NCBI GenBank assembly: GCA_026391515.1
Contig: JAPLEC010000435.1
Location: forward strand, 1-44,166
Length of the DNA stretch: 44,166 nt
Direction of reading: 5' to 3'
Origin: Bacteroidia bacterium
GTDB taxonomy: Bacteria; Bacteroidota; Bacteroidia; Bacteroidales; VadinHA17
Shown: positions 27,338 through 44,105 of the stretch, piece after piece
How the letters are laid out: every line of letters begins with the position of its first letter
Position numbering within the stretch: position 1 is the stretch's first letter
The notes under the pieces: model-generated
The model's database searches: none
What the model was told of the DNA's origin: nothing
What the model saw: only the letters and a program-made list of their open reading frames with translations
Made by a program: the position numbers and the translations under genes

Positions 27338-27350
27338 TTTGCACAGGGTA

Positions 27351-28156: not shown

Positions 28157-29041
28157 ATGGATTACCAGTCAGTACTCAAAAACCTGAAACCGAATCATGA
28201 TTTCTTTATCGGGATCGATTCCGACGGTTGTGTCTTTGATTCCATGGAGGTAAAACAAAAAGAATTCTTTATTCCAAATGCGCTTAAATTCTTCAACCTT
28301 TTTCCAGTTTCAAAACCGCTTCGCGAAACATGGGAATTCGTAAACCTCTATTCCGTTTATCGCGGAGGCAACAGGTTCCCTGCAATGATCAAAGTTTTTG
28401 ATCTTCTTAGTGATCGGGATGAGATTAAAGAAACCGGATTTAAGCTCCCCGATTTGAGTGCATTAAAAGAATGGATAAGTATCGAAACTAAACTCGGGAA
28501 TTCAAATCTTAGGAAATATTTTGAGGAGAAAAATGTCAAATCACTGGAAGTTGTTCTGAAATGGTCCGAGTCCGTAAACAGGGATATAAGCGAATGGCTT
28601 CACGACATCCCTCCATTTTTTCATGCAATAAAAGCTATTGAAAGAATTTCTCAGATTGCAGACATTATTGTTGTATCCCAGACTCCGCTTGAAGCTCTCG
28701 ATCGCGAATGGCTTGAAAATGATATCAAAAAATATGTCAGGATGATAGCAGCACAGGAGCATGGAACAAAAGCAGAACATATAGCGGTTGCTGCTAAAGG
28801 CAAATATCCTGACGATAAAATTCTGCTAATAGGCGATGCATTTGGCGACATGTTAGCAGCACAAACCAACAATGTACTTTTCTATCCAGTAGTCCCGGGG
28901 CAAGAGGATCAGTCGTGGAAAAAGCTTCTGAATGAAGGACTTGAAAGGTTTCTCAATGGAACATTTGCAGGTTCTTATGAAGAGTCTTTAATGGCAGAGT
29001 TCAGAAAGGTTTTACCTATTACACCTCCGTGGAAGAGGTAG
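28157..29041 (+). CDS. HAD-superfamily hydrolase-like protein
   Basis: FIGIDSDGCVFDSM (DxDxxxxD-like motif I), VSQTP, ILLIGDAFGDMLAAQ. Confidence 0.75.
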   Translation: MDYQSVLKNLKPNHDFFIGIDSDGCVFDSMEVKQKEFFIPNALKFFNLFPVSKPLRETWEFVNLYSVYRGGNRFPAMIKVFDLLSDRDEIKETGFKLPDLSALKEWISIETKLGNSNLRKYFEEKNVKSLEVVLKWSESVNRDISEWLHDIPPFFHAIKAIERISQIADIIVVSQTPLEALDREWLENDIKKYVRMIAAQEHGTKAEHIAVAAKGKYPDDKILLIGDAFGDMLAAQTNNVLFYPVVPGQEDQSWKKLLNEGLERFLNGTFAGSYEESLMAEFRKVLPITPPWKR

Positions 29042-29684
29042 AAAGAATCTGCTTACTTATCCATTTTATCCATTCTTTCAATCCGTTTCCCCTTGTGCAG
29101 GAAATCTCAAATAAGGGGACTTGTCCATTAATATTCTTTAAATCAGAATTAAAAGTCTCCCTTTTAAAATTTGTATATGGTATCAGGTCAATCTTATTTA
29201 ACAGAACTGCTTTCGCTTCTCTGAAAAGCATTGGATATTTGCCAGGTTTATCATCGCCTTCAGTGGTGCTGACTATTGCCAGTTTGAACGTTTCACCCAG
29301 ATCAAATTGAGACGGGCAGATGAGGTTGCCGACATTCTCTACAAACAAGACATCAAGGTCGTCAAGGTCAAATGAGTCAAGGACTTTTGAGATGCTGTGC
29401 GAATCAAGATGACAGCCGCCCTCAGTATTGATTACCACTATCGGGATGTTGTATTTCTTCAAACGCTGAGCATCCCTATCAGTTGTTATATCGCCTTCAA
29501 TTATCCCAATCCGGAATTTCTTATTCAATTCTTCACAGGTGCGTTCAAGCAAAGTTGTTTTCCCTGCGCCGGGTGAGCTTATTAAATTTACCATCAACAC
29601 TTTTTTAGCTACAAGTAAATTCCTCACTTCTCCTGCTTTGTTCTGGTTTCTGTCCAGAATATTCTTCATTATCTTGATTTCCAT
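29019..29684 (-). CDS. hypB: Hydrogenase nickel incorporation GTPase
   Basis: NLISSPGAGKTTLLERT, EGDITTDRDAQRL, FVENVGNLICP, NKIDLIPY. Confidence 0.96.
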   Translation of the reverse strand: MEIKIMKNILDRNQNKAGEVRNLLVAKKVLMVNLISSPGAGKTTLLERTCEELNKKFRIGIIEGDITTDRDAQRLKKYNIPIVVINTEGGCHLDSHSISKVLDSFDLDDLDVLFVENVGNLICPSQFDLGETFKLAIVSTTEGDDKPGKYPMLFREAKAVLLNKIDLIPYTNFKRETFNSDLKNINGQVPLFEISCTRGNGLKEWIKWISKQILSTSSTEV

Positions 29685-29686
29685 TG

Positions 29687-30028
29687 CTACTCTCCTTCTA
29701 TACTTTTTATAAATAATTCTTTTCCATGAATGATTTCCAGGTCAGTTGACCTGCAATTAGCGCATACAAACCTATTTTCTTCCACCCCGAAATCGTTTCC
29801 GCACTTTTTGCAAATCATCTTTACAGAAACTATTTCAATATTTACTTCAGCATCCTGTGCGATTGTATTTCTTACTGTTTCGCTGAAAGCAAAAATAAAA
29901 ATATCAGGAACAATCTGCACCAGCACTCCAAAGCTGATATTCACCTTTGTCACCTTCGAAAGTTTCTCACGTTTCGCTGTTTCAAGCACGATGGCCGAGA
30001 GATCTTCTGCTATTCTTATTTCGTGCAT
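29687..30028 (-). CDS. hypA: Hydrogenase nickel insertion protein
   Basis: MHEIRIAEDLSAIVLE; zinc site CKKCG...CANC. Confidence 0.95.
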   Translation of the reverse strand: MHEIRIAEDLSAIVLETAKREKLSKVTKVNISFGVLVQIVPDIFIFAFSETVRNTIAQDAEVNIEIVSVKMICKKCGNDFGVEENRFVCANCRSTDLEIIHGKELFIKSIEGE

Positions 30029-30038: not shown

Positions 30039-31046
30039 TTAACAGATTCTTGGAAGCTGCGCTCCTGAAGGCATATCAAGAATACGTTTTCCTCCAACGG
30101 ATGTATTTAGCACTACAAGGTTTCTTTTATCCGGTACTATTTCTCCAAATATAGAAGAGAATGCTCCCAATGCATCAGACCTGAGAATTTCAAGCACTTT
30201 TTCTGCCTCCTCTGCACTAGTAACAATTAATAGCTTCCCTTCATTTGCAAGATAGAGTGGATCAAATCCAAGTATTTCACATACTCCTCTAACCGGATCA
30301 TCAACAGGTATTGACGCCTCATCAGCGATAATACCTGAATTTATCATCCCAGCCAGCTCATTCATAACACCAGCAAGACCTCCCCTGGTCAGGTCGCGCA
30401 TAAAATGAATCTCTTTGCAGCTTTTCAGAACACCCTCTATAAGATGGTTCAGCGATGCACAATCAGAAGTTACAGGAGTGGTGAAGCTGAGCTTGTTACG
30501 GGCCCCGGCGACAGCGATGGAATGATTCCCCAGCGGACCATTAATAATCAGCTTATCACCCGGTTTAATGCGTTTGCCGGTACTGATATGCTCCTGACTG
30601 TAATCAAGGATTCCTGTTCCGGAAGTCGTAATGAAAAGTCTGTCGCATTTTCCCTTTTCCACAACTTTCGTATCTCCTGTCACTATTTTCACTCCTGCGT
30701 TCGTTGCTTCATCAGCCATTGATTCTGCAATTGTGACAAGATCGTTTACAGGAAAACCCTCTTCAATAATAAATGAAGCTGCGATATATTTTGGTTCTGC
30801 ACCCGAAACTGCCAGGTCATTCACTGTACCACAGATGGCAAGCTTCCCAATGTTGCCACCGGGGAAAAATAGTGGATCAATAACATAGGAATCCGTAGTA
30901 AAAACCAGAGTTTTTCCCATCTCTTTAAGAATAGCAGAATCGGTTAAAGGCTCAGTCATTCCGAATTTCTTCACAAACACTTTTTTAATCAGTTCATGTG
31001 TCTGCTTGCCACCGCTTCCATGATTTAAAGAGATAAGATCATTCAT
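30039..31046 (-). CDS. hypE: Hydrogenase maturation protein (carbamoyl dehydratase)
   Basis: LNHGSGGKQTHELI...; C-terminal PRIC. Confidence 0.97.
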   Translation of the reverse strand: MNDLISLNHGSGGKQTHELIKKVFVKKFGMTEPLTDSAILKEMGKTLVFTTDSYVIDPLFFPGGNIGKLAICGTVNDLAVSGAEPKYIAASFIIEEGFPVNDLVTIAESMADEATNAGVKIVTGDTKVVEKGKCDRLFITTSGTGILDYSQEHISTGKRIKPGDKLIINGPLGNHSIAVAGARNKLSFTTPVTSDCASLNHLIEGVLKSCKEIHFMRDLTRGGLAGVMNELAGMINSGIIADEASIPVDDPVRGVCEILGFDPLYLANEGKLLIVTSAEEAEKVLEILRSDALGAFSSIFGEIVPDKRNLVVLNTSVGGKRILDMPSGAQLPRIC

Positions 31047-32128
31047 CTGACTATTTTGTATTTATACCATGTATTGCATGAACCTTCATTAGAAACCATA
31101 CATGCTCCTACAGGGTTTTCAGGGACACAAATATTTGCAAAGAGAGGACACTGCTCAGGTGTTTTCATTCCTCTCAGTATCTCCCCGCAGATGCACCGGC
31201 TGTCATCCTCCTTATAATCGATTGAAACAGGCACCTGAATATCAGCATTGAACTTTCCATAATTATTCTGCAAACGGAGTCCGCTGGATGGGATCACTCC
31301 AAATCCTCTCCAGATTGCATCACAAGGTTCGAAAACTTCTTTTAAATCTTTCTGAGCTATGGTATTCCCTTTCACTGTGACTGCACGTTTGTATTGTATC
31401 TCAACGAAAGGGGAACTGTTATTTACCTGGGTTATCAGCATCAGAATTGACTGCAATAAATCTGTCGGTTCAAAGCCGGTTATAACACAACCTATTTTAT
31501 ATTTCTCAGGGATGAAGCCGAAAATTGAAGAGCCTGTTATGGCAGCAACATGTCCCGGACAAATAAATCCATCAATATTAACTCCTTCACTTACAATAGC
31601 TTCCATTGCAGGAGGCATAATTTTATGAGCGCTAAGTACAAAGAAATTATTAATGTCCTCTTTATCAGCCTGCTTAACAGTGACTGCAGTTCCGGGAGCT
31701 GTTGTTTCAAAACCTATTGCCAGGAAGATAATTTTCTTATCTGGATTTGCTCTTGCGATCTCCAGCGCTTCAAGACCCGAAAAAACAACTCTTATATCTG
31801 CTCCTTTCACTCTCTTTTTTTCAAGTGAAGAAGCTGATCCGGGAACTCTTACCAGGTCTCCGAAAGTGGTTATGATCACATCCTCCATCTCAGAATAAGT
31901 AACAGCCTTATCAATGAAATCAGTACCTGTGACACAGACAGGGCAGCCAGGGCCTGAGATCAGCCTGATCTTTTCTGAAAGCAATGATGGAATGCCGAAT
32001 CTGTGTATCGCGGCCGTATGACCACCGCACACTTCCATAAAGGTATAATCGTGTATGACTGACTTATTTATCTGACTCGACAGATTCTCTATCAGATCCT
32101 TATCCCTGTATTCATCTATAAACTTCAT
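31043..32128 (-). CDS. hypD: Hydrogenase formation protein
   Basis: FMEVCGGHTAAIHRFGI, LISGPGCPVCVT, AIGFETTAPGTA. Confidence 0.97.
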   Translation of the reverse strand: MKFIDEYRDKDLIENLSSQINKSVIHDYTFMEVCGGHTAAIHRFGIPSLLSEKIRLISGPGCPVCVTGTDFIDKAVTYSEMEDVIITTFGDLVRVPGSASSLEKKRVKGADIRVVFSGLEALEIARANPDKKIIFLAIGFETTAPGTAVTVKQADKEDINNFFVLSAHKIMPPAMEAIVSEGVNIDGFICPGHVAAITGSSIFGFIPEKYKIGCVITGFEPTDLLQSILMLITQVNNSSPFVEIQYKRAVTVKGNTIAQKDLKEVFEPCDAIWRGFGVIPSSGLRLQNNYGKFNADIQVPVSIDYKEDDSRCICGEILRGMKTPEQCPLFANICVPENPVGACMVSNEGSCNTWYKYKIVR

Positions 32129-32130: not shown

Positions 32131-32355
32131 TTATTCATTCAGGGTATCACTAATTTCTTTCAGTATCTTAAGTGTTTCAGCTGCCTCTTCTTCACTGATT
32201 TTCTGAATCGCAAATCCGGCATGGAGCAGTATATAATCTCCGACTTTTGCATTTTCGATCATATGCAAGCCTGCTTTAAATAAGCTTCCTCCGACAGAAA
32301 CTTCTGCCATGCTGCCATCGATCGACACAATCTTTGCTGGAATACTCAGACACAT
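32131..32355 (-). CDS. hypC: Hydrogenase assembly chaperone
   Basis: MCLSIPAKIVSID ... GDYILLHAGFAIQKI. Confidence 0.96.
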   Translation of the reverse strand: MCLSIPAKIVSIDGSMAEVSVGGSLFKAGLHMIENAKVGDYILLHAGFAIQKISEEEAAETLKILKEISDTLNE

Positions 32356-34589
32356 TATCTTATTCGTTTTGAAGCGATTACAAGCTGACCAAGGGATATT
32401 CCTCCGTCATTTGGCGGCACCAGGCGATTAGTAAAAACTTTAAACTTGTTCCGGGTTAAAAGATATAAAGATTTTTCCAGAAGATATTTATTCTGAAAGA
32501 CCCCTCCTGAAAGAATTACTTTTTTGAGAGATGTCTCTGCTCTTATTTGCCTGGCCACTTCCAGAATTACCTGCGCAACAGTGTTATGAAATTTTGCTGA
32601 TATTATGGAGATCGTCTGTACTGGCAAATCATTTATAATTGCTTTCAGAGTTTCCGAAAATTCAATAGGTTTTTCTGCAATGAACGGATATATATCATCT
32701 GTTTTATCATTGATTGCCGACTCTAGCCTCATGGGAGCTTCAGAATCAAATGTGGCAACACTGCAAAGCCCGAGAATTGATGATACCGCATCAAAAAGAC
32801 GTCCCGCACCGGAAGACACTGGTGAATTCATTTTCATTTCCAGCATCTCCTTAACCATTTGTAGTTTCTTTTCATCAATTGAATTAAAAAGTGAAATTGA
32901 TTTAAAGTTAAAACTATTCTCAAAGTATTTATAAATATATGAAAAAGCTGTTCTCCATGGTTCATCAATTGCTTTATCACCACCGGGTAAAGCAATATTG
33001 TCGAAATGCGTGAAACGGCTGAAATCTTTCAGATCAGCAATAATAAACTCACCGCCCCATATATTTCCGTCTGAACCATAACCTGTTCCATCCAGACTGA
33101 TTCCAATAACTTTTTCATCGATCCCGAGTTCAGCCATGCATGATGCGATATGAGCATGATGGTGCTGAATCCTGAAAAGAGGTATTTTCAGTTCTTTTTC
33201 AAGAGCTTCAGCATATTGACCAGAAAGATAGTCAGGATGAAGATCACATGCAATGTATTTCGGCTTAAATCTGAAGAGTTTTGAAAACCGGTCAATTGCT
33301 TCGCTGAAGAAATCGTAGGTAGCAAGATTTTTCAGATCGCCTATGAACTGGCTCATTACAGCCTGGTTTCCTTTTCCGATGCAAAAGCTGTTTTTCTGTT
33401 CTGATCCAACTGCAAGTATACCTTCGACATTGCACTTAACTTCTACAGGACGTGGTACAAATCCTCTCGATCGACGTATCAGACTTTCTTTGTTGTTAAT
33501 TATTCTGATTACGGAATCATCAGTTCTGTTGAGTATCTGTCTGTTATAGCTCAGCAGAGAATCAGCAATCGGCATTAACTTTTTTTCAGCAAGCAGGTCA
33601 TCTGTAATTATCGGTTCATCCGAGATGTTGCCGCTGGTCAAAACAACTACTGGAGTTTTGAGCATCCTGAAAAGCATGTAATGGACAGGCATATAGGGAA
33701 GCATCGCTCCTATTGTGGTAAGTCCGTTGCTTACCTGCTCAGCTAATAATTTTTTCTGTCTAAGGATTAATATTGGTCTTCGCCATGATTTCAGCGCTTT
33801 TTCCTCTTCATCTTCAATGTAACAATACTTTTTGGCAGCATTTATACCTCTGAACATGACGGCAAAAGGCTTAGAATCTCTTTGTTTCTTTTGTCTTAGA
33901 TTTCTTACAGCATCGTTATTTAAAGCATCGCACATAAGATGATAACCTCCCAGACCTTTAATTGCTACTGTTTTTCCTGAAGATATCTGGACAGAAACCT
34001 CTTCGAGTATCTCCTTTATATTACTGAGGTTTTTCACAGGATCTTTATAACTGTAAACCGGTCCGCAGGAATTGCAGGCTATAGGCTGCGCGTGAAAGCG
34101 CCGGTCAAGGATGTCGTTATATTCCACGCTGCAGCTTTTACACATCCTGAAGCTTTTCATGGTAGTTTTTTGCCGGTCAAAAGGTAATTCTTCAATGATT
34201 GTAAAGCGAGGGCCGCAATTTGTACAATTAACAAAAGGGTAATCAATTCTTTCAGGATCTTTCTCCAGGTCATCAAGACAGTCCTGGCAGACAGCAATAT
34301 CTGGGCTCACTTCAGTAATCTGATTATCAAGTATTTTGCTTGCAACAATTTTGAAGCTATTAAATGCGGCTGATTGTATTTCGTTAATTTCTATCGATTT
34401 GATCTGTGATGCAGGAGGGGCATTCCGGAGAATATCATTGCTGAATTTATCGATCGTCTTAATATCGCCATTAACTATCACTCGAACACCATCGGTTCTG
34501 TTATCTACTTCTCCAAAGAGATCATATTTTGCGGCCATTCTGCAGATAAAAGGGCGGAATCCAACACCCTGAACCAGCCCTTTGATCAA
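32355..34589 (-). CDS. hypF: Carbamoyltransferase HypF; TTG start, N-terminus uncertain
   Basis: GLVQGVGFRPF acylphosphatase domain, zinc fingers CQDCLDDL..CTNCGPRF..CKSC..CNSCGP, YrdC and Kae1-like domains. Confidence 0.95.
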   Translation of the reverse strand: MIKGLVQGVGFRPFICRMAAKYDLFGEVDNRTDGVRVIVNGDIKTIDKFSNDILRNAPPASQIKSIEINEIQSAAFNSFKIVASKILDNQITEVSPDIAVCQDCLDDLEKDPERIDYPFVNCTNCGPRFTIIEELPFDRQKTTMKSFRMCKSCSVEYNDILDRRFHAQPIACNSCGPVYSYKDPVKNLSNIKEILEEVSVQISSGKTVAIKGLGGYHLMCDALNNDAVRNLRQKKQRDSKPFAVMFRGINAAKKYCYIEDEEEKALKSWRRPILILRQKKLLAEQVSNGLTTIGAMLPYMPVHYMLFRMLKTPVVVLTSGNISDEPIITDDLLAEKKLMPIADSLLSYNRQILNRTDDSVIRIINNKESLIRRSRGFVPRPVEVKCNVEGILAVGSEQKNSFCIGKGNQAVMSQFIGDLKNLATYDFFSEAIDRFSKLFRFKPKYIACDLHPDYLSGQYAEALEKELKIPLFRIQHHHAHIASCMAELGIDEKVIGISLDGTGYGSDGNIWGGEFIIADLKDFSRFTHFDNIALPGGDKAIDEPWRTAFSYIYKYFENSFNFKSISLFNSIDEKKLQMVKEMLEMKMNSPVSSGAGRLFDAVSSILGLCSVATFDSEAPMRLESAINDKTDDIYPFIAEKPIEFSETLKAIINDLPVQTISIISAKFHNTVAQVILEVARQIRAETSLKKVILSGGVFQNKYLLEKSLYLLTRNKFKVFTNRLVPPNDGGISLGQLVIASKRIR

Positions 34590-35269
34590 TATTTCATATC
34601 CTTGTATAATAGCTCGAGGTTTTTAAGTCCGTCAACTTTTATCTGTTTGTGAACATAATAGATAACGCTTTCAAGCTCATCGCATAGATTCACATTACTA
34701 ATAATAACATCCTGCGGTACTTTCAGAAGAACAGGAGCAAAATTCACAATACCTTTAATTCCATGTCTTATAAGCTTATCAGCGACCTCCTGCGCAGATA
34801 TTTCGGGGACAGCCAGGATTGCCACTTTTACTCTGAACCTGTCGACAATTTCCTTTAACCGGTCCATGGAATATACCGGGATATCAGACCTTTGCTTTTG
34901 TTTGAAAGGATCAATGTCGAAAGTCGCAACAATATTCATATTGCGTTGAACAAACTTACTGTATTTCGACAGGGCAAGACCAAGGTTACCCATTCCTATA
35001 AGAACTAAATTGTGATCTTTGTTGCGATGGAAAATTTTTTCCATCTTTTCAAGAAGATCATTAATATCATATCCTCCCCGTTTATTCCCTTTTATGCCGA
35101 ACTCTGAAAAATCTTTTCTGACCTGTTCGGATGTCACACCGGTCTCATTTGCAAGCGTGTATGAGAAGACCTTTTCGACTCCCATAAGCCTTAGTCTGAC
35201 CAGGCATGCCCGGTAAAGAAAAATTCTTTTCAGGCTGTTTTTTATTATATATTTTGTGATTTGTTTCAC
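34586..35269 (-). CDS. rex: Redox-sensing transcriptional repressor Rex; GTG start
   Basis: TGVTSEQVRKDFSEFGIKGNKRGGYDI; LVLIGMGNLGLAL Rossmann motif. Confidence 0.94.
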   Translation of the reverse strand: MKQITKYIIKNSLKRIFLYRACLVRLRLMGVEKVFSYTLANETGVTSEQVRKDFSEFGIKGNKRGGYDINDLLEKMEKIFHRNKDHNLVLIGMGNLGLALSKYSKFVQRNMNIVATFDIDPFKQKQRSDIPVYSMDRLKEIVDRFRVKVAILAVPEISAQEVADKLIRHGIKGIVNFAPVLLKVPQDVIISNVNLCDELESVIYYVHKQIKVDGLKNLELLYKDMKY

Positions 35270-35435: not shown

Positions 35436-35455
35436 TATGTGAATCTTCTCACATA
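35436..35455. promoter_or_regulatory. Candidate Rex (or Crp-like) operator abutting start of the hydrogenase beta gene
   Basis: TATGTGA-ATCTTC-TCACATA, ends 1 nt before ATG 35457. Confidence 0.6.
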
Positions 35456-35456: not shown

Positions 35457-36446
35457 ATGCAATATAAAAGCATAAGAAAAGAAGAGTGGGACAAAGCCTT
35501 AGAGGAGCTTTCCGAATCCCATACTATTTTTGCAAACGTCAGCAATGATTTCGGGCAGGACTATGAACTGATGAGACCTGCTGATATTATAAGAATCATA
35601 TATAACAAACCTAAACCTGCAACATCTCTTAAGAGTTTCTTCCTGCCTGTCAAAGAAAATGTAACTTCAGACAGAAAAGGTGGAAAGCCAAGAATTATTA
35701 TCGGAGTGCCAAACTGCGATATCGAAGGAATATGTTTGCTGGATGAGATATATCTCGATAAGGATTTTAATGATATTTTTTACAGGAAGCGCCGTGAGGA
35801 AACACTGTTGATTTCATCAGATTGTTTTGGTATTCAGGAGCATTGTCATTGTCTTTCTTATGGCTTTAAGCCTTATTCAACAAGTAATGCTGACCTGGCA
35901 ATAATCCACCTTAATGAATTGATTATCTTCAGGATAATAACCGAAAAGGGGTCCGATTTCATTAATAAAATCCCGTCAGCAACACCACTTGACGATAAAG
36001 AAATTCTATCGGCTATTGAAAAAGAGCATCTTGCAACTGAATCGTTGCTTTCAACAGCAAACAAAGGATTACCGGATTATAAGACGACCGGTAAGATCGT
36101 CGCTGAAGCAAAAAATGAAACCTGGAATAAGTATTCTTCCCATTGTGTTTCATGTGGTGCCTGTGCAACTATCTGTCCGACATGCACCTGCTTTCTTTTG
36201 ATTGATAAGCCGGGATTTGAAAAAGTAAAACAGCTGGATGCCTGCCAATACCCTGGTTTTGAAAGGGTTGCGGGAGGAGAAGATGCTTTGTTCGAACTTC
36301 AGAACCGCTTCAGAAACAGGTATATGTGTAAATATGTATGGAAGCCTGAAAAATTTAAATCGCTTGCCTGTACAGGTTGCGGACGATGTATCGAAGCATG
36401 TATAGGTAAAATAAACAAGAACGAACTTTTTATGGAATTTGCTTAA
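35457..36446 (+). CDS. Sulfhydrogenase beta-subunit-like 4Fe-4S protein
   Basis: HCVSCGACATICPTCTC and CTGCGRCIEACIGKI clusters; N-terminal domain as in HydB/ShyB-type beta subunits. Confidence 0.85.
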   Translation: MQYKSIRKEEWDKALEELSESHTIFANVSNDFGQDYELMRPADIIRIIYNKPKPATSLKSFFLPVKENVTSDRKGGKPRIIIGVPNCDIEGICLLDEIYLDKDFNDIFYRKRREETLLISSDCFGIQEHCHCLSYGFKPYSTSNADLAIIHLNELIIFRIITEKGSDFINKIPSATPLDDKEILSAIEKEHLATESLLSTANKGLPDYKTTGKIVAEAKNETWNKYSSHCVSCGACATICPTCTCFLLIDKPGFEKVKQLDACQYPGFERVAGGEDALFELQNRFRNRYMCKYVWKPEKFKSLACTGCGRCIEACIGKINKNELFMEFA

Positions 36447-36454
36447 CAATTTGT

Positions 36455-37279
36455 ATGGCAAATAACCAGAACATATATAAACCCATAAAGGCAAAACTGA
36501 CAGATGTCATTGAGGAATCGCCTCTGATAAAGACATTTGTTCTTATTCCTGAAGAAGAGTTCTCGTTCAAAACAGGCCAATTCATTGAATTGTCTGTTGA
36601 CGGGATCGGGGAAGCTCCTTTTACCCCTTCTTCTTCCCCTCATGTTACGGATAAACTTGAAGTGACAATTATGAAAACAGGTTATGTAACTGAATACATG
36701 CATAATCTGAAGCCGGGAGGATACATGGGAATAAGGGGACCATACGGGCGAGGGTATCCTGTTGAAACTTTTTTCGGCAAGGAGGTGCTGATCCTTGGAG
36801 GCGGCTGCGGCCTTGCTCCCATCAGATCGTTATTGTATGCATTGGAACATGTGAAGGACAAACTAAAAAAAGTCATTCTTTGCTACGGATCGAAAACTCC
36901 GTCAGACTGTATTTATAAACCTCTTTTTGCCAGGCTGAACCAGATAGAAAAATTTGAAGCTTACCGAACTGTTGATAAAGCTGACGAAGAGTGGGATGGC
37001 TCAGTCGGTGTCGCTACCACATTGCTGAATACTATAAAAGTCGATATAAAGAATTCCGTAGCAGTTGTTTGCGGACCTCCGATCATGATGAAATTCGGAA
37101 CCATACGGATTATAGAAATGGGATACACCGATGATCAGATATACCTTTCTATGGAAAAAAATATGTCATGCGGTCTAGGTAAATGCGGTCATTGTATGAT
37201 GGGTGAATTCTTTGTCTGCAAAGATGGTCCGGTCTTTACATACAAAGAATTAAAAAATACCCCTGATATCTGGAAATAA
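36455..37279 (+). CDS. Sulfhydrogenase gamma-subunit-like FAD/NAD(P)-binding oxidoreductase
   Basis: EAPFTPSSSP FAD region, LILGGGCGLAPIRSLLY nucleotide site, CGLGKCGHCMMGEFFVC [2Fe-2S] site. Confidence 0.9.
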   Translation: MANNQNIYKPIKAKLTDVIEESPLIKTFVLIPEEEFSFKTGQFIELSVDGIGEAPFTPSSSPHVTDKLEVTIMKTGYVTEYMHNLKPGGYMGIRGPYGRGYPVETFFGKEVLILGGGCGLAPIRSLLYALEHVKDKLKKVILCYGSKTPSDCIYKPLFARLNQIEKFEAYRTVDKADEEWDGSVGVATTLLNTIKVDIKNSVAVVCGPPIMMKFGTIRIIEMGYTDDQIYLSMEKNMSCGLGKCGHCMMGEFFVCKDGPVFTYKELKNTPDIWK

Positions 37280-37313
37280 AAATCCAGGGAAAATTTTAAT
37301 TAGTTGACGACAA

Positions 37314-37784
37314 ATGAAAACTGAGAGCAATAAAGTAATAATAGAAGACCTGAAAAAAATAAGGTTTTTCGAAGGATACAGCGATAAGCAACTGACTGCA
37401 ATTGTGGAGATGAGTTCTGTTAAAGAGTTCAAGGTTAAGGAAATACTTTTTGAACAATACGATGAACTCCATGATGTTGATATACTTCTTGAAGGTTCAT
37501 TATCGCTTGGAATAAGCCTGGCTCATGAAAAAAGAATTCACCTTGGTACTATTGAAGAAGGTCAGCTTTTTTCATGGTCGGCTGTATTCAGTCCTTATAT
37601 ATCAACTGCATGGGTAATGGCAATGAAACCGGCAAAAGTAATATCAATAAATGCAAAGCAGCTGAATAAAAAGATTGAAGAGGATTGCGATTTCGGATTT
37701 AAAACAATGTCAAAAATTGCCCAGACTATTTCGCACAGGTTAAGCGACACAAGATTCCAGCTTATGAACCAGATGACAATTTAA
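37314..37784 (+). CDS. Cyclic-nucleotide-binding-domain (Crp-like sensor) protein without visible HTH
   Basis: IRFFEGYSDKQLTAIVEM...FEQYDELHDVDILLEGSLSLGI; only 156 aa. Confidence 0.8.
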   Translation: MKTESNKVIIEDLKKIRFFEGYSDKQLTAIVEMSSVKEFKVKEILFEQYDELHDVDILLEGSLSLGISLAHEKRIHLGTIEEGQLFSWSAVFSPYISTAWVMAMKPAKVISINAKQLNKKIEEDCDFGFKTMSKIAQTISHRLSDTRFQLMNQMTI

Positions 37785-37790
37785 AAAATA

Positions 37791-37871
37791 AACCCCCTTC
37801 CCTGCTTTCCCCGCCAGCTGGCGGGGGAAGGAGTGAAAAGCATCCCGCTTAGGCGGGACGGGAAAGGGGGT
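37791..37871. repeat. C/G-rich intergenic hairpin repeat with two nested palindromes
   Basis: CCCCCTTCC...CCCCGCCAGCTGGCGGGG...TCCCGC-TTAG-GCGGGA...GGGAAAGGGGG. Confidence 0.8.
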
Positions 37872-37905
37872 AAAAAAGAAAGAGTTAAAGTAAAAAAGAG
37901 TGATA

Positions 37906-38397
37906 ATGAAGATACTGATAGATATGATAAAGCTTCGTGCTGCCATGATTGAAAATTCAACCATGACATTGCCTGAAGCTTATTTCTATCCGTCAGCCAA
38001 TACTAATGGTCTTAAGACAATCCGTGAGCTTGCCACATTCAGGTTCACCTGCAGGAAATGCGAGGATGCTCCATGTATCAGCGTTTGTCCGGCAGAAGCT
38101 CTTGAAAAAGATGAAGATGGTATTATTACACGGTTTACCAATCTTTGTGTATCATGCAAATCGTGTGTTACAATCTGTCCGTTCGGCACAATGATGACCG
38201 ATTTTTTCAAGCATCACAGGAACAGGGATATTTTATATGATCTCAAAGATGGCAATGCTGTTGAAAAATTCATCAAAGCCTGTCCGGCAGGAACAGTAAC
38301 ACTTACCGATGAAGATGAGTCGCCTGCAAAGAATATTTACAGGCTCAATGATAAAGTACTGATAAAAGATTATTTATATATAACTGAAAAACAGTAA
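37906..38397 (+). CDS. HycB/CooF-like 4Fe-4S ferredoxin hydrogenase subunit
   Basis: CRKCEDAPCISVCPAEAL and CVSCKSCVTICPFG. Confidence 0.88.
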   Translation: MKILIDMIKLRAAMIENSTMTLPEAYFYPSANTNGLKTIRELATFRFTCRKCEDAPCISVCPAEALEKDEDGIITRFTNLCVSCKSCVTICPFGTMMTDFFKHHRNRDILYDLKDGNAVEKFIKACPAGTVTLTDEDESPAKNIYRLNDKVLIKDYLYITEKQ

Positions 38398-38407
38398 ATT
38401 ACGACCT

Positions 38408-39340
38408 ATGGCAGTTAATTTGTTTTATTTTCTTGTCTTCCCCGGCCTGCTGTTTGCAGGAGTTGTCGGAGCCTTTCTTTCGTGGTTCGACAGGAAGATT
38501 TCTGCCAGGGTCCAGTTCCGCAAAGGGCCTCCACTGCTTCAACCTTTTTACGACTTCTTCAAATTACTATTGGTCAAGGAAACAATACTTCCAAAGCACG
38601 GATCTCCGTTGGTATTTCTGATAGCACCCATCTTTGCGGTTTTTGGTGCGACAATGGCTGGAGTTTTCATTCTTCTACCTTTATTTAATATAACTACCGG
38701 CTTCAGGGGCGATCTGCTTGTCATATTCTACTTGCTGACAATCCCTTCATTTTCGTATATCATCGGAGCACTTGCTTCGGGTAATCCGCTTGCAGCTGTC
38801 GGTGGTTCAAGGGAGATGAAGCTTATAATCAGCTACGAGCTTACCTTCCTTCTGGTTATTGCCGGCGTTATAATGAAATGTGGACAGAAATTTGATCTCG
38901 ACTCAATAATTCAAACACAGCAGGCAGGATCTCCGTTTATCGGAAGCATTTCAGGTGTCCTGTTATTTATTGCAGGTATATTTTGCATCCAGGCTAAGCT
39001 GGCGCTCGTTCCATTCGACATGCCTGAAGCGGAAGCTGAAATAACTGAAGGAATTTTTATTGAATATTCCGGAGCCGCTTATGCGATGATAAAGCTTACA
39101 AAATATATTATGTTTTTCATATTGCCGGCTTTTCTTATTGCACTGTTAATGAACGGATTCAAATTGGAAGGGATCGGTATTTTGTGGGCAGTGCTTAAAG
39201 TTCTGGCAGTTGTTCTGGCTCTCACTTTAATAAAGAACACAAATCCGAGGATAAAGATCAAGCAGGCTATAAGCTTCTTCTTAATCTGGATGAATCTGTT
39301 GGTAGTTATTGCCCTGGTACTAATTGCATTTGGTTATTAA
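38408..39340 (+). CDS. NuoH/EchB/HycD-like membrane subunit
   Basis: GVVGAFLSWFDRKISARVQFRKGPPLLQPFYDFFKLL; EAEAEITEGIFIEYSG. Confidence 0.93.
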   Translation: MAVNLFYFLVFPGLLFAGVVGAFLSWFDRKISARVQFRKGPPLLQPFYDFFKLLLVKETILPKHGSPLVFLIAPIFAVFGATMAGVFILLPLFNITTGFRGDLLVIFYLLTIPSFSYIIGALASGNPLAAVGGSREMKLIISYELTFLLVIAGVIMKCGQKFDLDSIIQTQQAGSPFIGSISGVLLFIAGIFCIQAKLALVPFDMPEAEAEITEGIFIEYSGAAYAMIKLTKYIMFFILPAFLIALLMNGFKLEGIGILWAVLKVLAVVLALTLIKNTNPRIKIKQAISFFLIWMNLLVVIALVLIAFGY

Positions 39341-39440
39341 GAGCGTGTAATAAATGTTTAAATGAATATTATAAATCGTAAATTGATAATTTGATTAAGT
39401 ATTAATAAAGTGTTGTAATATTTTTCTTATTACACACTCT
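39340..39440. repeat. AT-rich element bounded by 14-bp inverted repeats
   Basis: AGAGCGTGTAATAA (39340-39353) and TTATTACACACTCT (39427-39440), 13/14 complementary. Confidence 0.6.
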
Positions 39441-39453
39441 AAATATAATAGTT

Positions 39454-39864
39454 GTGGGTTTTAAAAATTATTGCTTCAAAAAATCGCTCTGGGTCTTCCA
39501 TTTCGGAGGAGCCTCCTGCAATAATTGTGATATTGAGATTCTGGATTGTCTGACACCGAGACATGACCTTGAACGATTTGGAATTCTTCTGGTGGGAAGC
39601 ATAAGGCATGCCGATGTTCTGCTTGTAAACGGGTCTATAAACATGCATGATAAAGAGCGACTTATTGAGGTTTATAACCAGGCTCCGAAACCGATACTTG
39701 TTATTGCTATTGGTGCGTGCGGATGTACAGGAGGATTTTTCACCGAGAGTTATACATTTGCAGGACCAGTTGATAAAATCATCCCGGTCGATGCGTACGT
39801 TCCGGGGTGTCCTCCAAAACCGGAAGCGATTATAGCGGGGATTGTGAAGCTGTTGAATAAATAG
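39454..39864 (+). CDS. NuoB-like [NiFe] hydrogenase small subunit (GTG start)
   Basis: FHFGGASCNNCDIEILDCLTPRHDLERFGI, GACGCTGG, YVPGCPPKPEAI. Confidence 0.93.
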   Translation: MGFKNYCFKKSLWVFHFGGASCNNCDIEILDCLTPRHDLERFGILLVGSIRHADVLLVNGSINMHDKERLIEVYNQAPKPILVIAIGACGCTGGFFTESYTFAGPVDKIIPVDAYVPGCPPKPEAIIAGIVKLLNK

Positions 39865-39872
39865 CACCCATA

Positions 39873-40014
39873 GATCCCCTCCTAGGAGGGGCAAGGGGTG
39901 GGTTTTAAAAGATAAAAGACAAAAGATAAAAGAAAAAAGAAAAAAACAAAAGATCCCCTCCTAGGAGAGCCTGTCCCGCGTAGCTTTAGCGAAGTGGGGG
40001 CAAGGGGTTGGTTA
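39873..40014. repeat. Two adjacent copies of a C-rich element, first with AAAAGAC tail, second with an internal insert
   Basis: gatcccctcctaggaggggcaaggggtgggttttaaaagataaaagac... and gatcccctcctaggag[...]gggcaaggggttggtt. Confidence 0.85.
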
Positions 40015-40035
40015 AAAAAACTGAATATCAGTTAA

Positions 40036-40479
40036 ATGGATACAAAAACGATCATAGGAGAATTTAAAGAGAAATTTAAATCTGCTATTCTTGGTGAAGT
40101 AGCTAAGAATGAGAAGCGTGTGATCATTTCTATAAAACCTGATTCCATTTTGAAGGTTGCGGATTATTTATATAAAACTGATGGTTTCAGGTTTATTATT
40201 GCTTCAGCATTACATACAAAAGAAGGATTTGAGATCCATTACCATTTCAGTAAAGATGAAATCGGACTTATTCTCAACATACATGTCCTCCTCGATAAGA
40301 ATAAGCCGGAAATTGAATCACTATCGAACATGTTCAATGCTTCGAACTGGATAGAACGGGAGATGCATGAACTGTTAGGCATCAATTTTCTGAATCATCC
40401 GAATCAGGAGAAGCTGATTTCGGAAGGTAACTGGGCTGAAGGAATTTATCCATTACGAAAGGAATTTAAAAACTCGTAA
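40036..40479 (+). CDS. NuoC-like (30 kDa) hydrogenase subunit
   Basis: FNASNWIEREMHELLGINFLNHPN ... GIYPLRKEF. Confidence 0.9.
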   Translation: MDTKTIIGEFKEKFKSAILGEVAKNEKRVIISIKPDSILKVADYLYKTDGFRFIIASALHTKEGFEIHYHFSKDEIGLILNIHVLLDKNKPEIESLSNMFNASNWIEREMHELLGINFLNHPNQEKLISEGNWAEGIYPLRKEFKNS

Positions 40480-40487
40480 AAGAGACA

Positions 40488-41696
40488 ATGAGTAAGAAGA
40501 CACTTATACCGATCGGACCTTATCACCCATTGCAGGAAGAGCCTGAATTATTCAAGCTCTATTGTGACGGAGAGATTGTCAAGGACATTAAATGGGAAAC
40601 CGGGTATAACCACAGGGGAATTGAAAAACTCAGTGAATCAAAGACTTATGAGCAGATATTCTTCCTTGTTGAACGTATTTGCGGTATATGCTCAAATTCT
40701 CACCCGTTTGCTTTTGCCAACGCAGTTGAAGAGATAGCTGACATTGAACTTACAAACAGGGCAAAATATATCAGAACAATAATTGCAGAGCTTGAGCGGA
40801 TACACAGCCATTTGTTATGGGTCGGTCTTGCCGGGCACTTTCTGGGCTATAATACTGTTTTCATGTGGGCATGGAAATACCGCGAGCCTACTCTCGATCT
40901 TTTTGAAATGATCTCAGGAAACAGGAACAGCTATGCAATGTTTAAAGTGGGCGGTGTAAGAAGAGATATTGAAGAAGCAAAAATCCCTGTTATACAGAAA
41001 GTTCTGGATGATATTAAGAAGAAGACCGATCTGCTGACAGGTGCTGTGATGGATGATCCTGTCATTCACGCAAGAACAAAAGGAGTTGGCATTCTGACCA
41101 AGCAGGATGTCATTGATTATGGAGCTGTAGGCCCGACAGCAAGAGCTTCTGGTCTGGCAATCGATGTACGAAAGGATGATCCTTATGCAGCTTACCCGCT
41201 GGTTAACTGGAAAGTGATTACCGCAGAAGCCGGTGATGTATTCGCTAAAGCCCAGGTCAGATTACTCGAGATGTACGAATCAATATCAATTATTGAACAA
41301 TGTCTCGATGGTCTTAAAAAGGAAAAAGAGGGAGCCATTGAGGTAAAAGTCAAGGAGATTCCCGAGGGAATTGGCAATGGCCGGGCAGAAGCACCACGCG
41401 GCGAAGTGTTCCACTTTGTGCAGTCGGATGGATCTAATTCACCCGTCAGGCATAAGATACGGGCTCCAAGCTATGTAAATATTGCGACCTTCAGAAAATC
41501 GTGTGTAGGACAGACTATTGCCGACGCAACAATTTCATTGGCTGCAGTTGATCCATGTTATTGCTGCACTGAACGTATGGCAGTCGCTTATGACAATAGT
41601 TCAGGTAAAAAGATCCTGAACGCAAAGGAATTAATTGATCTTTCAATATTGAAAACAGCGGAAATAAAGAAAACTTTATCAGGACGGAATGAATGA
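40488..41696 (+). CDS. NuoD-like group 4 [NiFe] hydrogenase large subunit
   Basis: ERICGICSNSHP (L1) and DPCYCCTERM (L2): both CxxC pairs for Ni-Fe ligation present. Confidence 0.94.
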   Translation: MSKKTLIPIGPYHPLQEEPELFKLYCDGEIVKDIKWETGYNHRGIEKLSESKTYEQIFFLVERICGICSNSHPFAFANAVEEIADIELTNRAKYIRTIIAELERIHSHLLWVGLAGHFLGYNTVFMWAWKYREPTLDLFEMISGNRNSYAMFKVGGVRRDIEEAKIPVIQKVLDDIKKKTDLLTGAVMDDPVIHARTKGVGILTKQDVIDYGAVGPTARASGLAIDVRKDDPYAAYPLVNWKVITAEAGDVFAKAQVRLLEMYESISIIEQCLDGLKKEKEGAIEVKVKEIPEGIGNGRAEAPRGEVFHFVQSDGSNSPVRHKIRAPSYVNIATFRKSCVGQTIADATISLAAVDPCYCCTERMAVAYDNSSGKKILNAKELIDLSILKTAEIKKTLSGRNE

Positions 41697-43563
41697 GTTT
41701 ATCTCCATATTTACACGACCTGTTGACAGCCAGGTTCTGCAATTCATTATCTTATTGCCCATCCTTGGGGGGTTATTACTTCTTTTCATTCCTGAGAAAT
41801 TCAGAACTTATAAAGGGCTGATTGCTATTCTGATAAGTGTCATTACAGGTTATTTGACAATTGTTATTTATCGTTCAGAAAACCAGATGCTGAGCCAGGA
41901 TCAGTTGTTTTCAGGATCACTCCTGCTTCATGGTTTTGGCAGGTTTCTGACATTCAACATCGATAATCTGAGTAAGCTGATTATTTTGTTTATCAGTCTC
42001 TTTGCTCTCTTAATTCTTGTATACTCAATTGTTTATATTAAAGAAGGAAGAGTTAAGAATTATTATCCTTATTTCCTGATTACCCTTGGCTGTTCATACG
42101 GAGCCATTTTGTCTGATAATCTTCTTCTGTTTCTGTTCTTCTGGGGAATCCTCGGACTGACATTATATAAGCTTATCCATGGTCATGATGAAGAGAGCTC
42201 GGCAACAGCCAAGAAAACTCTTATTCTGATTGGTGCGTCCGATAGCATTATGATTATAGGAATAGCCATAATCTGGAAAATTACAGGTTCGCTGAGCATG
42301 GGTGGAGTAAAAGTGCCGACCACGAATATTGTTTCAGTGGTTGCTTTCCTGGCTTTGCTGACAGGCAGTTTTACCAAGGCAGGTGCCTTCCCTTTCCATA
42401 CCTGGGTCCCTGATTATGCAAAGAGTGCTCCTGCTTCTTCATCGGCTTACCTTCCGGCATCACTTGATAAGCTCCTTGGGATATATTTTCTTGCGAGGAT
42501 TACCACTGATATGTTTGTGCTTAATGGATTCCTGACTTTTCTGCTTCTCTTAACAGGCGTCATAACGATTATTATTGCCGTTATGATGGCCCTTATTCAA
42601 CATAATTACAAAAGATTGCTTGGATTCCATGCCGTGTCCCAGGTTGGATATATGATCCTTGGACTTGGCCTTGGATCAACGATTGGTGTTGCAGCCGGTC
42701 TTTTCCATATGGTTAACCATGCTCTCTATAAGAGTGGACTTTTTCTGTCTGCCGGAAGTATTGAATATCGTACTGGAAAAGAAGAAATTGAAGATCTGGG
42801 TGGCTTGTCAAAAGCAATGCCGATTACCTTCTTTGCATCTCTCGTCTTTGCCATGTCGATTTCAGGAGTGCCTCCATTCAACGGGTTTGCTTCCAAATGG
42901 ATGATCTACCAGGGAATAATTGATTTTGGTTCAGGTACCGGAATTGCAAACAAGTTATGGATATTATGGCTTGGTCTGGCAGTACTTGGATCGGCTCTTA
43001 CGCTGGCAAGTTTCATTAAACTTATTGGAGGAATCTTCCTGAGCAGAAGGAAAGCAGAGTTTGAAAATATAAAGGAAGTTCCCGTGATAATGTGGTTACC
43101 ATTGGTTATTCTCTCTGTATTTTGTATCCTGTTTGGTGTATTTGCGACAAAAGTTGTATCTAAATTATTCATGCCGATAACTGGTCCATTTAAATTCACA
43201 GGGTTCTGGGATTCTTCATTTGTTTCACTACTTGTTATTATCTCACTGATTCTTGGAATAATACTTTATCTTGCTCTTAATATTAAAAAATTCAGGACTG
43301 AAGATAGCTTTATAGGCGGTGAAAGAATTCAGGACCGGACCAGTTATGCAACAACGGAGTTCTATAAGACTATTGGGGAATTTAAATTTTTCTCCTGGAT
43401 ATATAAAAAAGCTGAAGAGCGGTGGTTCGATTTATATGATTTATGCAAACAATTTGTGCTCTGGCTGAGCCACCAATTGAGTGAAGCTCATTCAGGTGTG
43501 TTAACGGGGTATATTATCTGGGTCTGTGCCGGACTGATTATTATGTTGCTCATTATGATATAA
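41689..43563 (+). CDS. NuoL/NuoM/MrpD-like ion-translocating membrane subunit
   Basis: FTKAGAFPFHTWVPDYAKSAPASSSAYLPASLDKLLGIYFLARI; HMVNHALYKSGLFLSAGSI. Confidence 0.93.
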   Translation: MNEFISIFTRPVDSQVLQFIILLPILGGLLLLFIPEKFRTYKGLIAILISVITGYLTIVIYRSENQMLSQDQLFSGSLLLHGFGRFLTFNIDNLSKLIILFISLFALLILVYSIVYIKEGRVKNYYPYFLITLGCSYGAILSDNLLLFLFFWGILGLTLYKLIHGHDEESSATAKKTLILIGASDSIMIIGIAIIWKITGSLSMGGVKVPTTNIVSVVAFLALLTGSFTKAGAFPFHTWVPDYAKSAPASSSAYLPASLDKLLGIYFLARITTDMFVLNGFLTFLLLLTGVITIIIAVMMALIQHNYKRLLGFHAVSQVGYMILGLGLGSTIGVAAGLFHMVNHALYKSGLFLSAGSIEYRTGKEEIEDLGGLSKAMPITFFASLVFAMSISGVPPFNGFASKWMIYQGIIDFGSGTGIANKLWILWLGLAVLGSALTLASFIKLIGGIFLSRRKAEFENIKEVPVIMWLPLVILSVFCILFGVFATKVVSKLFMPITGPFKFTGFWDSSFVSLLVIISLILGIILYLALNIKKFRTEDSFIGGERIQDRTSYATTEFYKTIGEFKFFSWIYKKAEERWFDLYDLCKQFVLWLSHQLSEAHSGVLTGYIIWVCAGLIIMLLIMI

Positions 43564-43577
43564 ATAACTCAAGCTAA

Positions 43578-44105
43578 ATGGAAATTGCCATATCCATAAT
43601 AACCGGGTTGATGATCTTGGGAGCGTTGTACGCCATTCATGCAAAAGATCTGCTTTCAGCTGTGATAGCTTGCGGCATTGTCGGCTATGGTCTGGTGATA
43701 TGTTTCCTTCTTCTTAAAGCTCCTGACCTTGCAATTGTTCAAATTGTTGTGGAGACAATCACTCTTATTATTATGGTTGCCGTTGTTCTTGACAGCTCAA
43801 GGGAAGAAAAATTCTCAAAACCCGATCCACAGGAATATATTTCAATTGTAACGAGCATATTTTTTATTGTGATATTGTTCTACTTCTTTAAGATAGCTAT
43901 AGGTAGTCTTGATGCATTTGGTGAAAGCACACTGCGTATGGCAGGTCCTTATATTGAAGGAGCGACTGCAAAAACAGGCAGCGCTAATCTTGTTACAGGT
44001 GTCGTTTTTGATTTCAGAGGATATGACACCATGGGTGAAGCAACGGTTCTGGTAACTGCAGTGCTGGGGGTATTGACAATCTTACGCATTAAAGGAAAAA
44101 AATAA
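43578..44105 (+). CDS. DUF4040/MbhD-MbhE-like (MrpB-like) membrane subunit
   Basis: [74 protein letters not shown]. Confidence 0.9.

What the first reader, a model, noticed from the sequence alone, without database searches (positions are those of the whole stretch)
35457..44105. NAD(P)H-diaphorase module joined to a Mrp-like group 4 [NiFe] hydrogenase
Seen: nine same-strand genes with small gaps encode sulfhydrogenase-like beta (Fe-S) and gamma (FAD/NAD(P)/2Fe-2S) subunits, a cNMP sensor domain, a HycB/CooF ferredoxin, NuoH-, NuoB-, NuoC-, NuoD-like subunits, a NuoL/MrpD-like pump and a DUF4040/MbhDE-like subunit. Established: beta/gamma subunits normally accompany soluble group 3b hydrogenases, while the H, B, C, D and Mrp-like set belongs to membrane-bound group 4 enzymes that usually use ferredoxin, formate or CO. 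Inference: this may be a membrane hydrogenase exchanging electrons with NAD(P)H, using an ion gradient to drive H2 evolution from NADH or conserving energy the other way. The operon continues beyond the window.
Basis: partly seen in the sequence, partly recalled or inferred. Interest (0 to 1): 0.75.

Follow-up and report, generated by a model that had tools for sequence, protein, structure and literature searches.

The report
NADH-linked, ion-coupled hydrogenase operon
A fermenting Bacteroidales bacterium carries a membrane hydrogen-making enzyme that appears to take electrons from NADH and to be coupled to an ion pump; the same gene set, often with an NADH-sensing switch in front, occurs in several distant phyla, so a hydrogenase class usually labelled 'ferredoxin-driven' probably has another electron donor here.

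Summary
Observation confirmed. Ten same-strand genes (not nine) encode sulfhydrogenase-type beta/gamma, a cNMP-domain protein, a CooF-like ferredoxin, NuoH/B/C/D-like hydrogenase subunits, a NuoL/MrpA-like subunit and MbhD/E. The window is a whole contig; the operon resumes on contig C232 with MrpD-G, a NuoI-like subunit and a HycI protease. MrpB and MrpC fall in the assembly gap. Beta/gamma are not incidental: 47 of 49 readable relatives in Bacteroidota, Cloacimonadota, Omnitrophota, Clostridia and others keep the order, the Fe-S/Ni cysteines are conserved, D and gamma trees agree, and no other [NiFe] large subunit was found in the genome. New here: Rex (NADH/NAD+ sensor) operator palindromes upstream of beta in 29 of 55 loci across phyla, about 690-fold above background. 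Rex lets go when NADH is high, which points to NADH disposal as H2. A group A6 (NADH-dependent) [FeFe] hydrogenase lies about 8 kb upstream. Prior art: one Saganbacteria locus with asrA/asrB, cooF and Mrp was reported in 2019, donor unknown; HydDB labels group 4g 'ferredoxin-coupled (putative)'. Verdict: a testable new variant of Mrp-linked group 4 hydrogenase; donor, direction and coupling are unproven.

The parts
35457..36446 (+). beta subunit (HydB/ShyB/AsrA-like, multiple Fe-S clusters)
   Evidence: best solved relative is P. furiosus sulfhydrogenase 1 beta, 9nez_B, E 2.7e-30; 16 conserved Cys, 15 invariant in 56 sequences and C291 in 54
36455..37279 (+). gamma subunit (FAD, NAD(P), [2Fe-2S] diaphorase; HydG/AsrB-like)
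   Evidence: 9nez_C sulfhydrogenase 1 gamma, E 2e-49; four 2Fe-2S Cys invariant in 62/62
37314..37784 (+). cNMP-binding (CRP-fold) protein, no DNA-binding domain found by Pfam; variably present
   Evidence: present in 9 of 49 readable relatives
37900..38397 (+). CooF/HycB-like ferredoxin subunit, two [4Fe-4S] sites in this lineage
38408..39340 (+). NuoH/MbhM-like membrane anchor
   Evidence: PF00146 E 7.9e-63
39454..39864 (+). NuoB/MbhJ-like small subunit
   Evidence: PF01058 E 2.5e-30; C22, C25, C89, C119 kept in 75-76 of 76 sequences
40036..40479 (+). NuoC/MbhK-like subunit
   Evidence: PF00329 E 3.2e-23
40488..41696 (+). NuoD/MbhL-like [NiFe] large (catalytic) subunit with C-terminal extension after DPCYCCTER
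   Evidence: only [NiFe] large subunit found in the genome
41689..43563 (+). NuoL/MrpA-N-like antiporter subunit; TM5 Glu replaced by Gly
   Evidence: PF00361 E 5.1e-57
43578..44105 (+). MbhD/MbhE (MrpA C-terminal)-like subunit
   Evidence: PF13244, PF20501
35255..35270 (.). palindrome TGTGATTTGTTTCACA (candidate Rex operator 1, overlapping the called rex start)
   Evidence: Only two exact TGTGA-N6-TCACA in the window, 0.05 expected
35438..35453 (.). palindrome TGTGAATCTTCTCACA ending 3 bp before the beta start codon (candidate Rex operator 2)
34586..35269 (-). Rex, NADH/NAD+-sensing repressor, divergent
   Evidence: NF003996 215.8 bits, cut-off 138; PF06971, PF02629
32355..34589 (-). HypF, [NiFe] maturation
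   Evidence: Sequence; kept next to the operon in relatives; name from its sequence features, no profile run
32131..32355 (-). HypC
   Evidence: neighbourhood conserved; no profile run
31043..32128 (-). HypD
   Evidence: neighbourhood conserved; no profile run
30039..31046 (-). HypE
   Evidence: neighbourhood conserved; no profile run
29687..30028 (-). HypA
   Evidence: neighbourhood conserved; no profile run
29019..29684 (-). HypB
   Evidence: TIGR00073 251.7 bits, cut-off 121.2
24375..26156 (-). neighbouring [FeFe] hydrogenase HydA, group A6 (NADH-dependent)
   Evidence: NF040763 885.7 bits, cut-off 765; 14-20 kb from D in 15 genomes including this one
26177..27424 (-). NuoF-like subunit of that [FeFe] hydrogenase
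   Evidence: TIGR01959 E 3e-103
27351..27818 (-). NuoE-like subunit of that [FeFe] hydrogenase
   Evidence: TIGR01958 E 2e-36

Best explanation
The operon encodes one membrane-bound, Mrp-linked group 4 [NiFe] hydrogenase whose electron-input module is a sulfhydrogenase-type NAD(P)H diaphorase. Inferred electron path: NADH -> FAD and [2Fe-2S] (gamma) -> [4Fe-4S] clusters (beta) -> CooF-like ferredoxin -> NuoI-like subunit (on C232) -> NuoB-like cluster -> [NiFe] in the NuoD-like subunit -> H2. The NuoH-, NuoL/MrpA-, MbhDE- and MrpB-G-like membrane arm couples this to ion movement. NADH -> H2 without coupling is only favourable at a few tens of Pa H2, so the likeliest direction under load is H2 evolution from NADH helped by inward H+/Na+ flow, as a sink for excess NADH; at high H2 it could run backwards and export ions. 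Rex represses the operon while NAD+ dominates and releases it when NADH accumulates. Shown by computation: gene content, conservation, cofactor ligands, co-inheritance, operator-like sites. Inferred: physical assembly, donor identity, Rex binding, direction, ion and stoichiometry.
For: Order beta-gamma-(cNMP)-Fd-H-B-C-D-L-DE-MrpB-G-NuoI-like: beta/gamma in 47 of 49 loci readable upstream and MrpB-G plus NuoI-like in 47 of 48 readable downstream, across Bacteroidota, Cloacimonadota, Omnitrophota, Clostridia MAGs and other lineages, and in a phylum member whose D is only 57% identical. D forms a supported clade apart from MBH and FHL. Operon gammas group together, apart from Hdr-linked gammas and SHI gamma (94/90); D and gamma distances correlate, r 0.77, 0 of 2000 permutations. 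Fe-S and Ni cysteines conserved. No other [NiFe] large subunit found in the genome. Closest solved structures: MBH for D, SHI gamma and beta. HycI protease in the operon. Rex divergent. Operator palindromes: 2 in the window against 0.05 expected; only 8 in the 3.5-Mb genome; 44 in 19 kb upstream of beta against 4 in 1.2 Mb elsewhere. Omnitrophota/Clostridia sites such as TTGTGAAAAAATTCACAA match the S. aureus Rex consensus TTGTGAAW4TTCACAA, whose binding NADH decreases (PMC2883068). Rex found in 8 of 9 non-Bacteroidota genomes with the site. Uncoupled NADH-dependent HydAB reaches only 2-40 Pa H2 (PMC7311640).
Against: No biochemistry is known to me for this clade. The NuoI-like subunit is what ferredoxin-driven Mbh uses, so ferredoxin entry remains possible. 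TGTGA-N6-TCACA is also the core of the CRP consensus (own knowledge). Some clade members lack both an exact site and Rex (Cloacimonadota L131, L132; also L127, L150, L152). One relative (bin64 chromosome, L124) has H-B-C-D-L-DE without beta/gamma or Mrp, and L115 lacks a recognisable beta. The NuoL-like subunit lacks the TM5 glutamate. NADH versus NADPH was not determined from sequence. In Bacteroidota the CooF-like subunit has lost two of four cluster sites, so the wire from beta may differ from the inferred one.
Confidence: 0.66

Rival explanations
1. Energy-conserving uptake enzyme: H2 is oxidised, electrons go to NAD(P)+ through beta/gamma, and ions are exported, giving NAD(P)H and an ion gradient.
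For: The chemistry is reversible; HydDB notes reversibility for groups 3b and 4e (PMC5037454); the Mrp arm could export ions.
Against: A Rex-type promoter would turn the operon on when NADH is already plentiful, the wrong logic for making NADH; the NADH-dependent [FeFe] A6 neighbour fits H2 disposal.
Confidence: 0.16
2. Ferredoxin-driven Mbh with the NuoI-like subunit as entry, where beta/gamma serve as a second branch (ferredoxin:NAD(P)+ exchange, or joint use of NADH and ferredoxin).
For: NuoI-like subunit conserved with 8 Cys in 51/51; HydDB lists 4g as putatively ferredoxin-coupled; Rnf, hence a ferredoxin/NADH economy, is encoded in the genome.
Against: Gamma carries a single FAD/NAD unit like SHI, and no NfnB-type or NuoF-type second flavin protein is in the operon, so there is no recognised confurcation site; formate hydrogenlyase also combines a NuoI-like and a HycB-like subunit with a non-ferredoxin donor (own knowledge).
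Confidence: 0.14
3. Beta/gamma are only neighbours and act with another partner, for example a sulfite or polysulfide reductase.
For: Beta/gamma resemble AsrA/AsrB about as well as HydB/HydG; a paralogous pair lies in an Hdr-like cluster.
Against: Beta/gamma in place in 47 of 49 loci across phyla, tree agreement with D; no gene matching a sulfite reductase catalytic subunit in the operon or its C232 continuation.
Confidence: 0.04

Closest known systems
Unnamed group 4 hydrogenase locus of Saganbacteria RX5A (Matheus Carnevali 2019, PMC6349859)
   Same: Group 4 subunits, Mrp-like subunits, cooF, asrA and asrB; related to Omnitrophica and Zixibacteria enzymes; electron donor called unknown
   Different: That locus also has a molybdopterin oxidoreductase (as does our Clostridia locus L142); the window operon has none. 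Rex sites and NADH were not found proposed in the passages read of the main text.
HydDB [NiFe] group 4g
   Same: Mrp-linked 4g enzymes are reported in Cloacimonadota and Omnitrophota (PMC8542988), phyla that carry this operon
   Different: 4g is labelled ferredoxin-coupled (putative), undetermined role (PMC5037454); the classifier could not be run here
P. furiosus membrane-bound hydrogenase MBH (group 4d)
   Same: Closest solved large subunit (6cfw_L, E 2.7e-86); MbhD/E, MrpB-G and NuoI-like parts
   Different: MBH takes ferredoxin and has no beta/gamma, CooF-like or NuoL/MrpA-N-like subunit (own knowledge); separate clade
P. furiosus soluble hydrogenase I (group 3b sulfhydrogenase)
   Same: Beta and gamma subunits with the same cysteine pattern
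   Different: SHI is soluble with its own alpha and delta; no group 3b alpha was found in this genome
E. coli formate hydrogenlyase (group 4a)
   Same: HycB-like plus NuoI-like relay between a donor module and the [NiFe] subunit
   Different: Donor module is formate dehydrogenase and there is no Mrp arm (own knowledge)
Group A6 NADH-dependent [FeFe] hydrogenase (Syntrophomonas Hyd1ABC type)
   Same: Also disposes of NADH as H2; encoded about 8 kb from beta
   Different: Soluble, not ion-coupled, limited to low H2 (PMC7311640)

Membership tests
Group 4 (energy-converting, membrane-bound) [NiFe] hydrogenase | NuoD-like large subunit with both CxxC motifs for NiFe | tested here: met
   C65, C68, C357, C360 invariant in 80/80; PF00346 and PF00374
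Group 4 (energy-converting, membrane-bound) [NiFe] hydrogenase | NuoB-, NuoC-, NuoH- and NuoI-like subunits and an antiporter-like subunit | tested here: met
Mrp-linked (Mbh-like) subset | MrpB-G and MbhD/E type subunits in the operon | tested here: met
   MbhD/E in window; MrpD-G on C232; MrpB and C seen only in relatives, lost in the gap here
HydDB group 4g | Assignment by HydDB classifier or reference tree | not testable with these tools
   No HydDB reference set; only same phyla and same Mrp linkage reported as 4g
Group 4d (P. furiosus MBH type) | Large subunit within the MBH clade | tested here: not met
   Clade of 56 rows (98/98) excludes MBH and FHL; only one MBH reference available and its branch is long
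Group 3b sulfhydrogenase | Group 3b alpha (and delta) subunits with beta and gamma | tested here: not met
   Only [NiFe] large subunit found in the genome is the group 4 one
Sulfhydrogenase-type diaphorase (beta/gamma) | FAD and NAD domains, 2Fe-2S Cys in gamma, full Cys set in beta | tested here: met
Sulfhydrogenase-type diaphorase (beta/gamma) | Reaction with NADH or NADPH | not testable with these tools
   Needs assay
Rex-regulated operon | Rex gene in the genome and Rex-type operator at the promoter | tested here: met
Rex-regulated operon | Rex binds the operator and NADH releases it | not testable with these tools
   Needs gel shift; CRP-type regulators share the core motif
Flavin-based electron-confurcating hydrogenase | A recognised bifurcating flavin or NuoF-type subunit in the complex | tested here: not met
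   None in the operon or its continuation

The most novel reading that the evidence does not exclude
A widespread clade of NADH:proton oxidoreductases that use an ion gradient to push electrons uphill from NADH to H2 under Rex control, i.e. an ion-driven hydrogen-evolving relative of complex I, raising the H2 pressure at which fermenters can still discard NADH.
Probability: 0.45. Interest if true: 0.82.

Novelty: new variant of a known kind. Interest (0 to 1): 0.66.

Why it matters
Group 4g [NiFe] hydrogenases are annotated by default as ferredoxin-coupled with undetermined role. If this clade uses NADH and an ion gradient, hydrogen budgets of anaerobic Bacteroidota, Cloacimonadota and Omnitrophota in sediments and digesters need re-reading. 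NADH could then be discarded as H2 without a tightly coupled hydrogen consumer: by my estimate one ion moved inward at about 180 mV per H2 lifts the equilibrium H2 pressure about 1000-fold. The Rex-type operators give a donor-side clue independent of homology, and Labilibacter sediminis CG51 (80% identical large subunit, same gene order) gives a named strain in which to test it.

Tried and rejected
MnhB search in own genome: none, explained by the assembly gap. Searches centred on Omnitrophota or Clostridia genomes: not accepted by the tool. Considered and rejected: beta/gamma belonging to a group 3b enzyme in the same genome; beta/gamma borrowed from the Hdr-like cluster (gammas separate in the tree); an Ehr-type complex without Ni (all four Ni ligands present). 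Literature search for the cultured Labilibacter strain found nothing. Structure prediction was not used: sequence matches to solved SHI and MBH subunits already fix the folds, and single-chain models cannot show whether the modules bind each other. NADH/NADPH specificity from sequence motifs was looked at and left open.
Full report
WHAT IS THERE. The window is one whole contig (C423, 44,166 bp) of a 3.5-Mb, 463-contig genome, 92% complete. Its nearest named relatives are Bacteroidales MAGs. Divergent on the other strand are rex, then genes that read as hypF, hypC, hypD, hypE, hypA and hypB.

THE REST OF THE OPERON. The contig stops at a dispersed repeat. In the same genome contig C232 begins, at base 15, with an MrpD 80% identical to that of a congener. 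It continues with MrpE, MrpF, MrpG, a NuoI-like two-cluster ferredoxin subunit, a HycI-type maturation protease and a protein with two CxxC pairs and no Pfam match. Relatives have MrpB and MrpC between the two pieces; they are missing from this assembly. The full set is therefore a hydrogenase, a complete Mrp-type membrane module and a beta/gamma module.

IS BETA/GAMMA PART OF IT? Of 49 related loci with enough upstream sequence, 47 have beta and gamma in place, and 47 of 48 have all of MrpB-G plus the NuoI-like gene. The loci come from Bacteroidota, Cloacimonadota, Omnitrophota, Clostridia, Desantisbacteria and others. A phylum member with a large subunit only 57% identical still has the whole operon, while a 45%-identical one has a different set without beta/gamma (L047). 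The exceptions are L124 (bin64), which lacks beta/gamma and Mrp, and L115, which lacks a recognisable beta. In 59 genomes of the same family, genes at least 68% identical to gamma lie close upstream of the D gene in nearly every genome where both are on one contig. The large-subunit tree gives a clade of 56 rows with 98/98 support apart from MBH and FHL (the reference branches are long). The operon gammas group together (94/90) and apart from Hdr-linked paralogs and P. furiosus SHI gamma. D and gamma distances correlate with r 0.77, 0 of 2000 permutations as high; this also reflects shared descent, so it shows co-inheritance, not contact.

COFACTORS. Conserved cysteines: 16 in beta (15 invariant in 56 sequences, C291 in 54), 4 in gamma (62/62), 8 in the NuoI-like subunit (51/51), 8 in the CooF-like subunit (67/67), and the four Ni ligands of D (80/80); C22, C25, C89 and C119 of the NuoB-like subunit are kept in 75-76 of 76. 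The best solved relatives are P. furiosus MBH for D and sulfhydrogenase I for gamma and beta. In Bacteroidota the CooF-like subunit has lost ligands of two further clusters that other phyla keep (2-3 of 44 retain most of them). D keeps a C-terminal tail after DPCYCCTER and the operon has a HycI protease, as expected for a processed [NiFe] subunit.

ARE BETA/GAMMA FROM A GROUP 3B ENZYME? No sign of it. PF00374 finds no other [NiFe] large subunit in the genome. The one other beta/gamma pair is in a cluster with HdrC/B/A-like and FlpD (MvhD-like) genes.

THE DONOR: REX. The pattern TGTGA-N6-TCACA occurs twice in the window, both between rex and beta, against 0.05 expected. It occurs eight times in the genome; of the other six, four lie inside ORFs, one between convergent gene ends (L178) and one upstream of a gene (L176). 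Upstream of beta, 29 of 55 loci have at least one exact site. The density there is 44 sites in 19 kb against 4 in 1.2 Mb of the remaining locus sequence, about 690-fold; related genomes are not independent, so this is an enrichment and not a probability. Omnitrophota and Clostridia sites read TTGTGAAAAAATTCACAA or nearly so, which fits the S. aureus Rex consensus TTGTGAAW4TTCACAA; NAD+ strengthens Rex binding and NADH weakens it (PMC2883068). In Omnitrophota loci no rex lies next to the operon in the DNA read, yet 8 of the 9 Omnitrophota, Clostridia and unclassified genomes with the site have Rex, against 3 of 8 compared genomes without an exact site. CRP-type regulators share the core motif (own knowledge), so binding must be tested. 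If Rex is the regulator, the operon is switched on when NADH accumulates, which argues for NADH oxidation and H2 evolution.

NEIGHBOURHOOD. At 24375-27818 (minus strand) lie an [FeFe] hydrogenase that passes the NCBIfam model 'NADH-dependent [FeFe] hydrogenase, group A6' and its NuoF- and NuoE-like subunits, ending about 8 kb from beta. In 15 genomes including this one it sits 14-20 kb from D. A purified uncoupled NADH-dependent HydAB reached only 2.2-40 Pa H2 (PMC7311640). A plausible reading is two gears: the soluble enzyme at low H2, the ion-coupled one at higher H2. This is inference. Rnf is also encoded. Genomes of four genera of the family (g4, g12, g13, g14) have the large subunit without any [FeFe] hydrogenase match, so the pairing is not obligatory.

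MECHANISM. See best explanation. One ion entering at about 180 mV yields about 17 kJ/mol, i.e. about three decades of H2 pressure per ion per H2 (my calculation; the gradient is assumed). The NuoL/MrpA-like subunit has Gly in place of the TM5 Glu in 72 of 73 sequences while K230, K261, K348 and K403 are kept, so the number of active ion channels is unclear.

WHAT IS KNOWN. HydDB: 4g is 'Ferredoxin-coupled (putative)', 'Undetermined role' (PMC5037454). Mrp-linked 4g enzymes are reported in Cloacimonadota and Omnitrophota and read as ferredoxin-driven or by analogy with Mbh (PMC8542988). The same kind of gene set (Mrp-like, cooF, asrA, asrB, plus a molybdopterin enzyme) was noted once as 'enigmatic' in Saganbacteria RX5A, with unknown donor (PMC6349859). 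So the combination is not unseen. What is added here is its breadth, its conservation, the absence of a 3b enzyme, and the Rex-type operators pointing to NADH. Ten literature searches in an open-access library cannot exclude other reports.

VERDICT. Observation confirmed, interpretation supported, with donor and direction sharpened but unproven.

Noticed in passing
window 24375-27818: Group A6-type NADH-dependent [FeFe] hydrogenase (HydA, NuoF-, NuoE-like) in the same H2 island; synteny with the [NiFe] operon in 15 genomes.
   Followed up: partly
window 39878-39912 and 44119-44153: Dispersed repeat of about 50 bp (core CCTCCTAGGAGGGGCAAGGGGTGGGTTTTAAAAGA), about ten places in the genome, one inside the operon between NuoB- and NuoC-like genes and one at the contig end.
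   Followed up: partly
window 41689-43563 (residue 153): The NuoL/MrpA-like subunit has Gly where NuoL, NuoM and MrpD have the TM5 Glu, in 72 of 73 relatives; the channel lysines are kept.
   Followed up: partly
window 37900-38397: CooF-like subunit has two [4Fe-4S] sites in Bacteroidota but ligands for more in other phyla.
   Followed up: partly
L164:4436-19852, L165, own contigs C238 and C170: A second beta/gamma pair lies in an HdrABC/FlpD-like cluster, in relatives directly next to a complex I operon in which no NuoE, F or G was seen.
   Followed up: partly
L142:567-6917: A Clostridia locus puts a molybdopterin oxidoreductase and a second beta-like protein before a Rex-like gene, beta and gamma, resembling the Saganbacteria RX5A description.
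   Followed up: partly
window 37314-37784: cNMP-binding protein without a recognised DNA-binding domain sits between gamma and ferredoxin genes in only 9 of 49 relatives; role unknown.
   Followed up: no
L124, L034 (bin64 chromosome): Isolated H-B-C-D-L-DE block without beta/gamma, Mrp or NuoI-like gene: decay, variant or assembly fault.
   Followed up: no
L161:3689-4108: Last gene of the operon, 139 aa with two CxxC pairs and no Pfam match; homologues seen only in Bacteroidota loci here.
   Followed up: no
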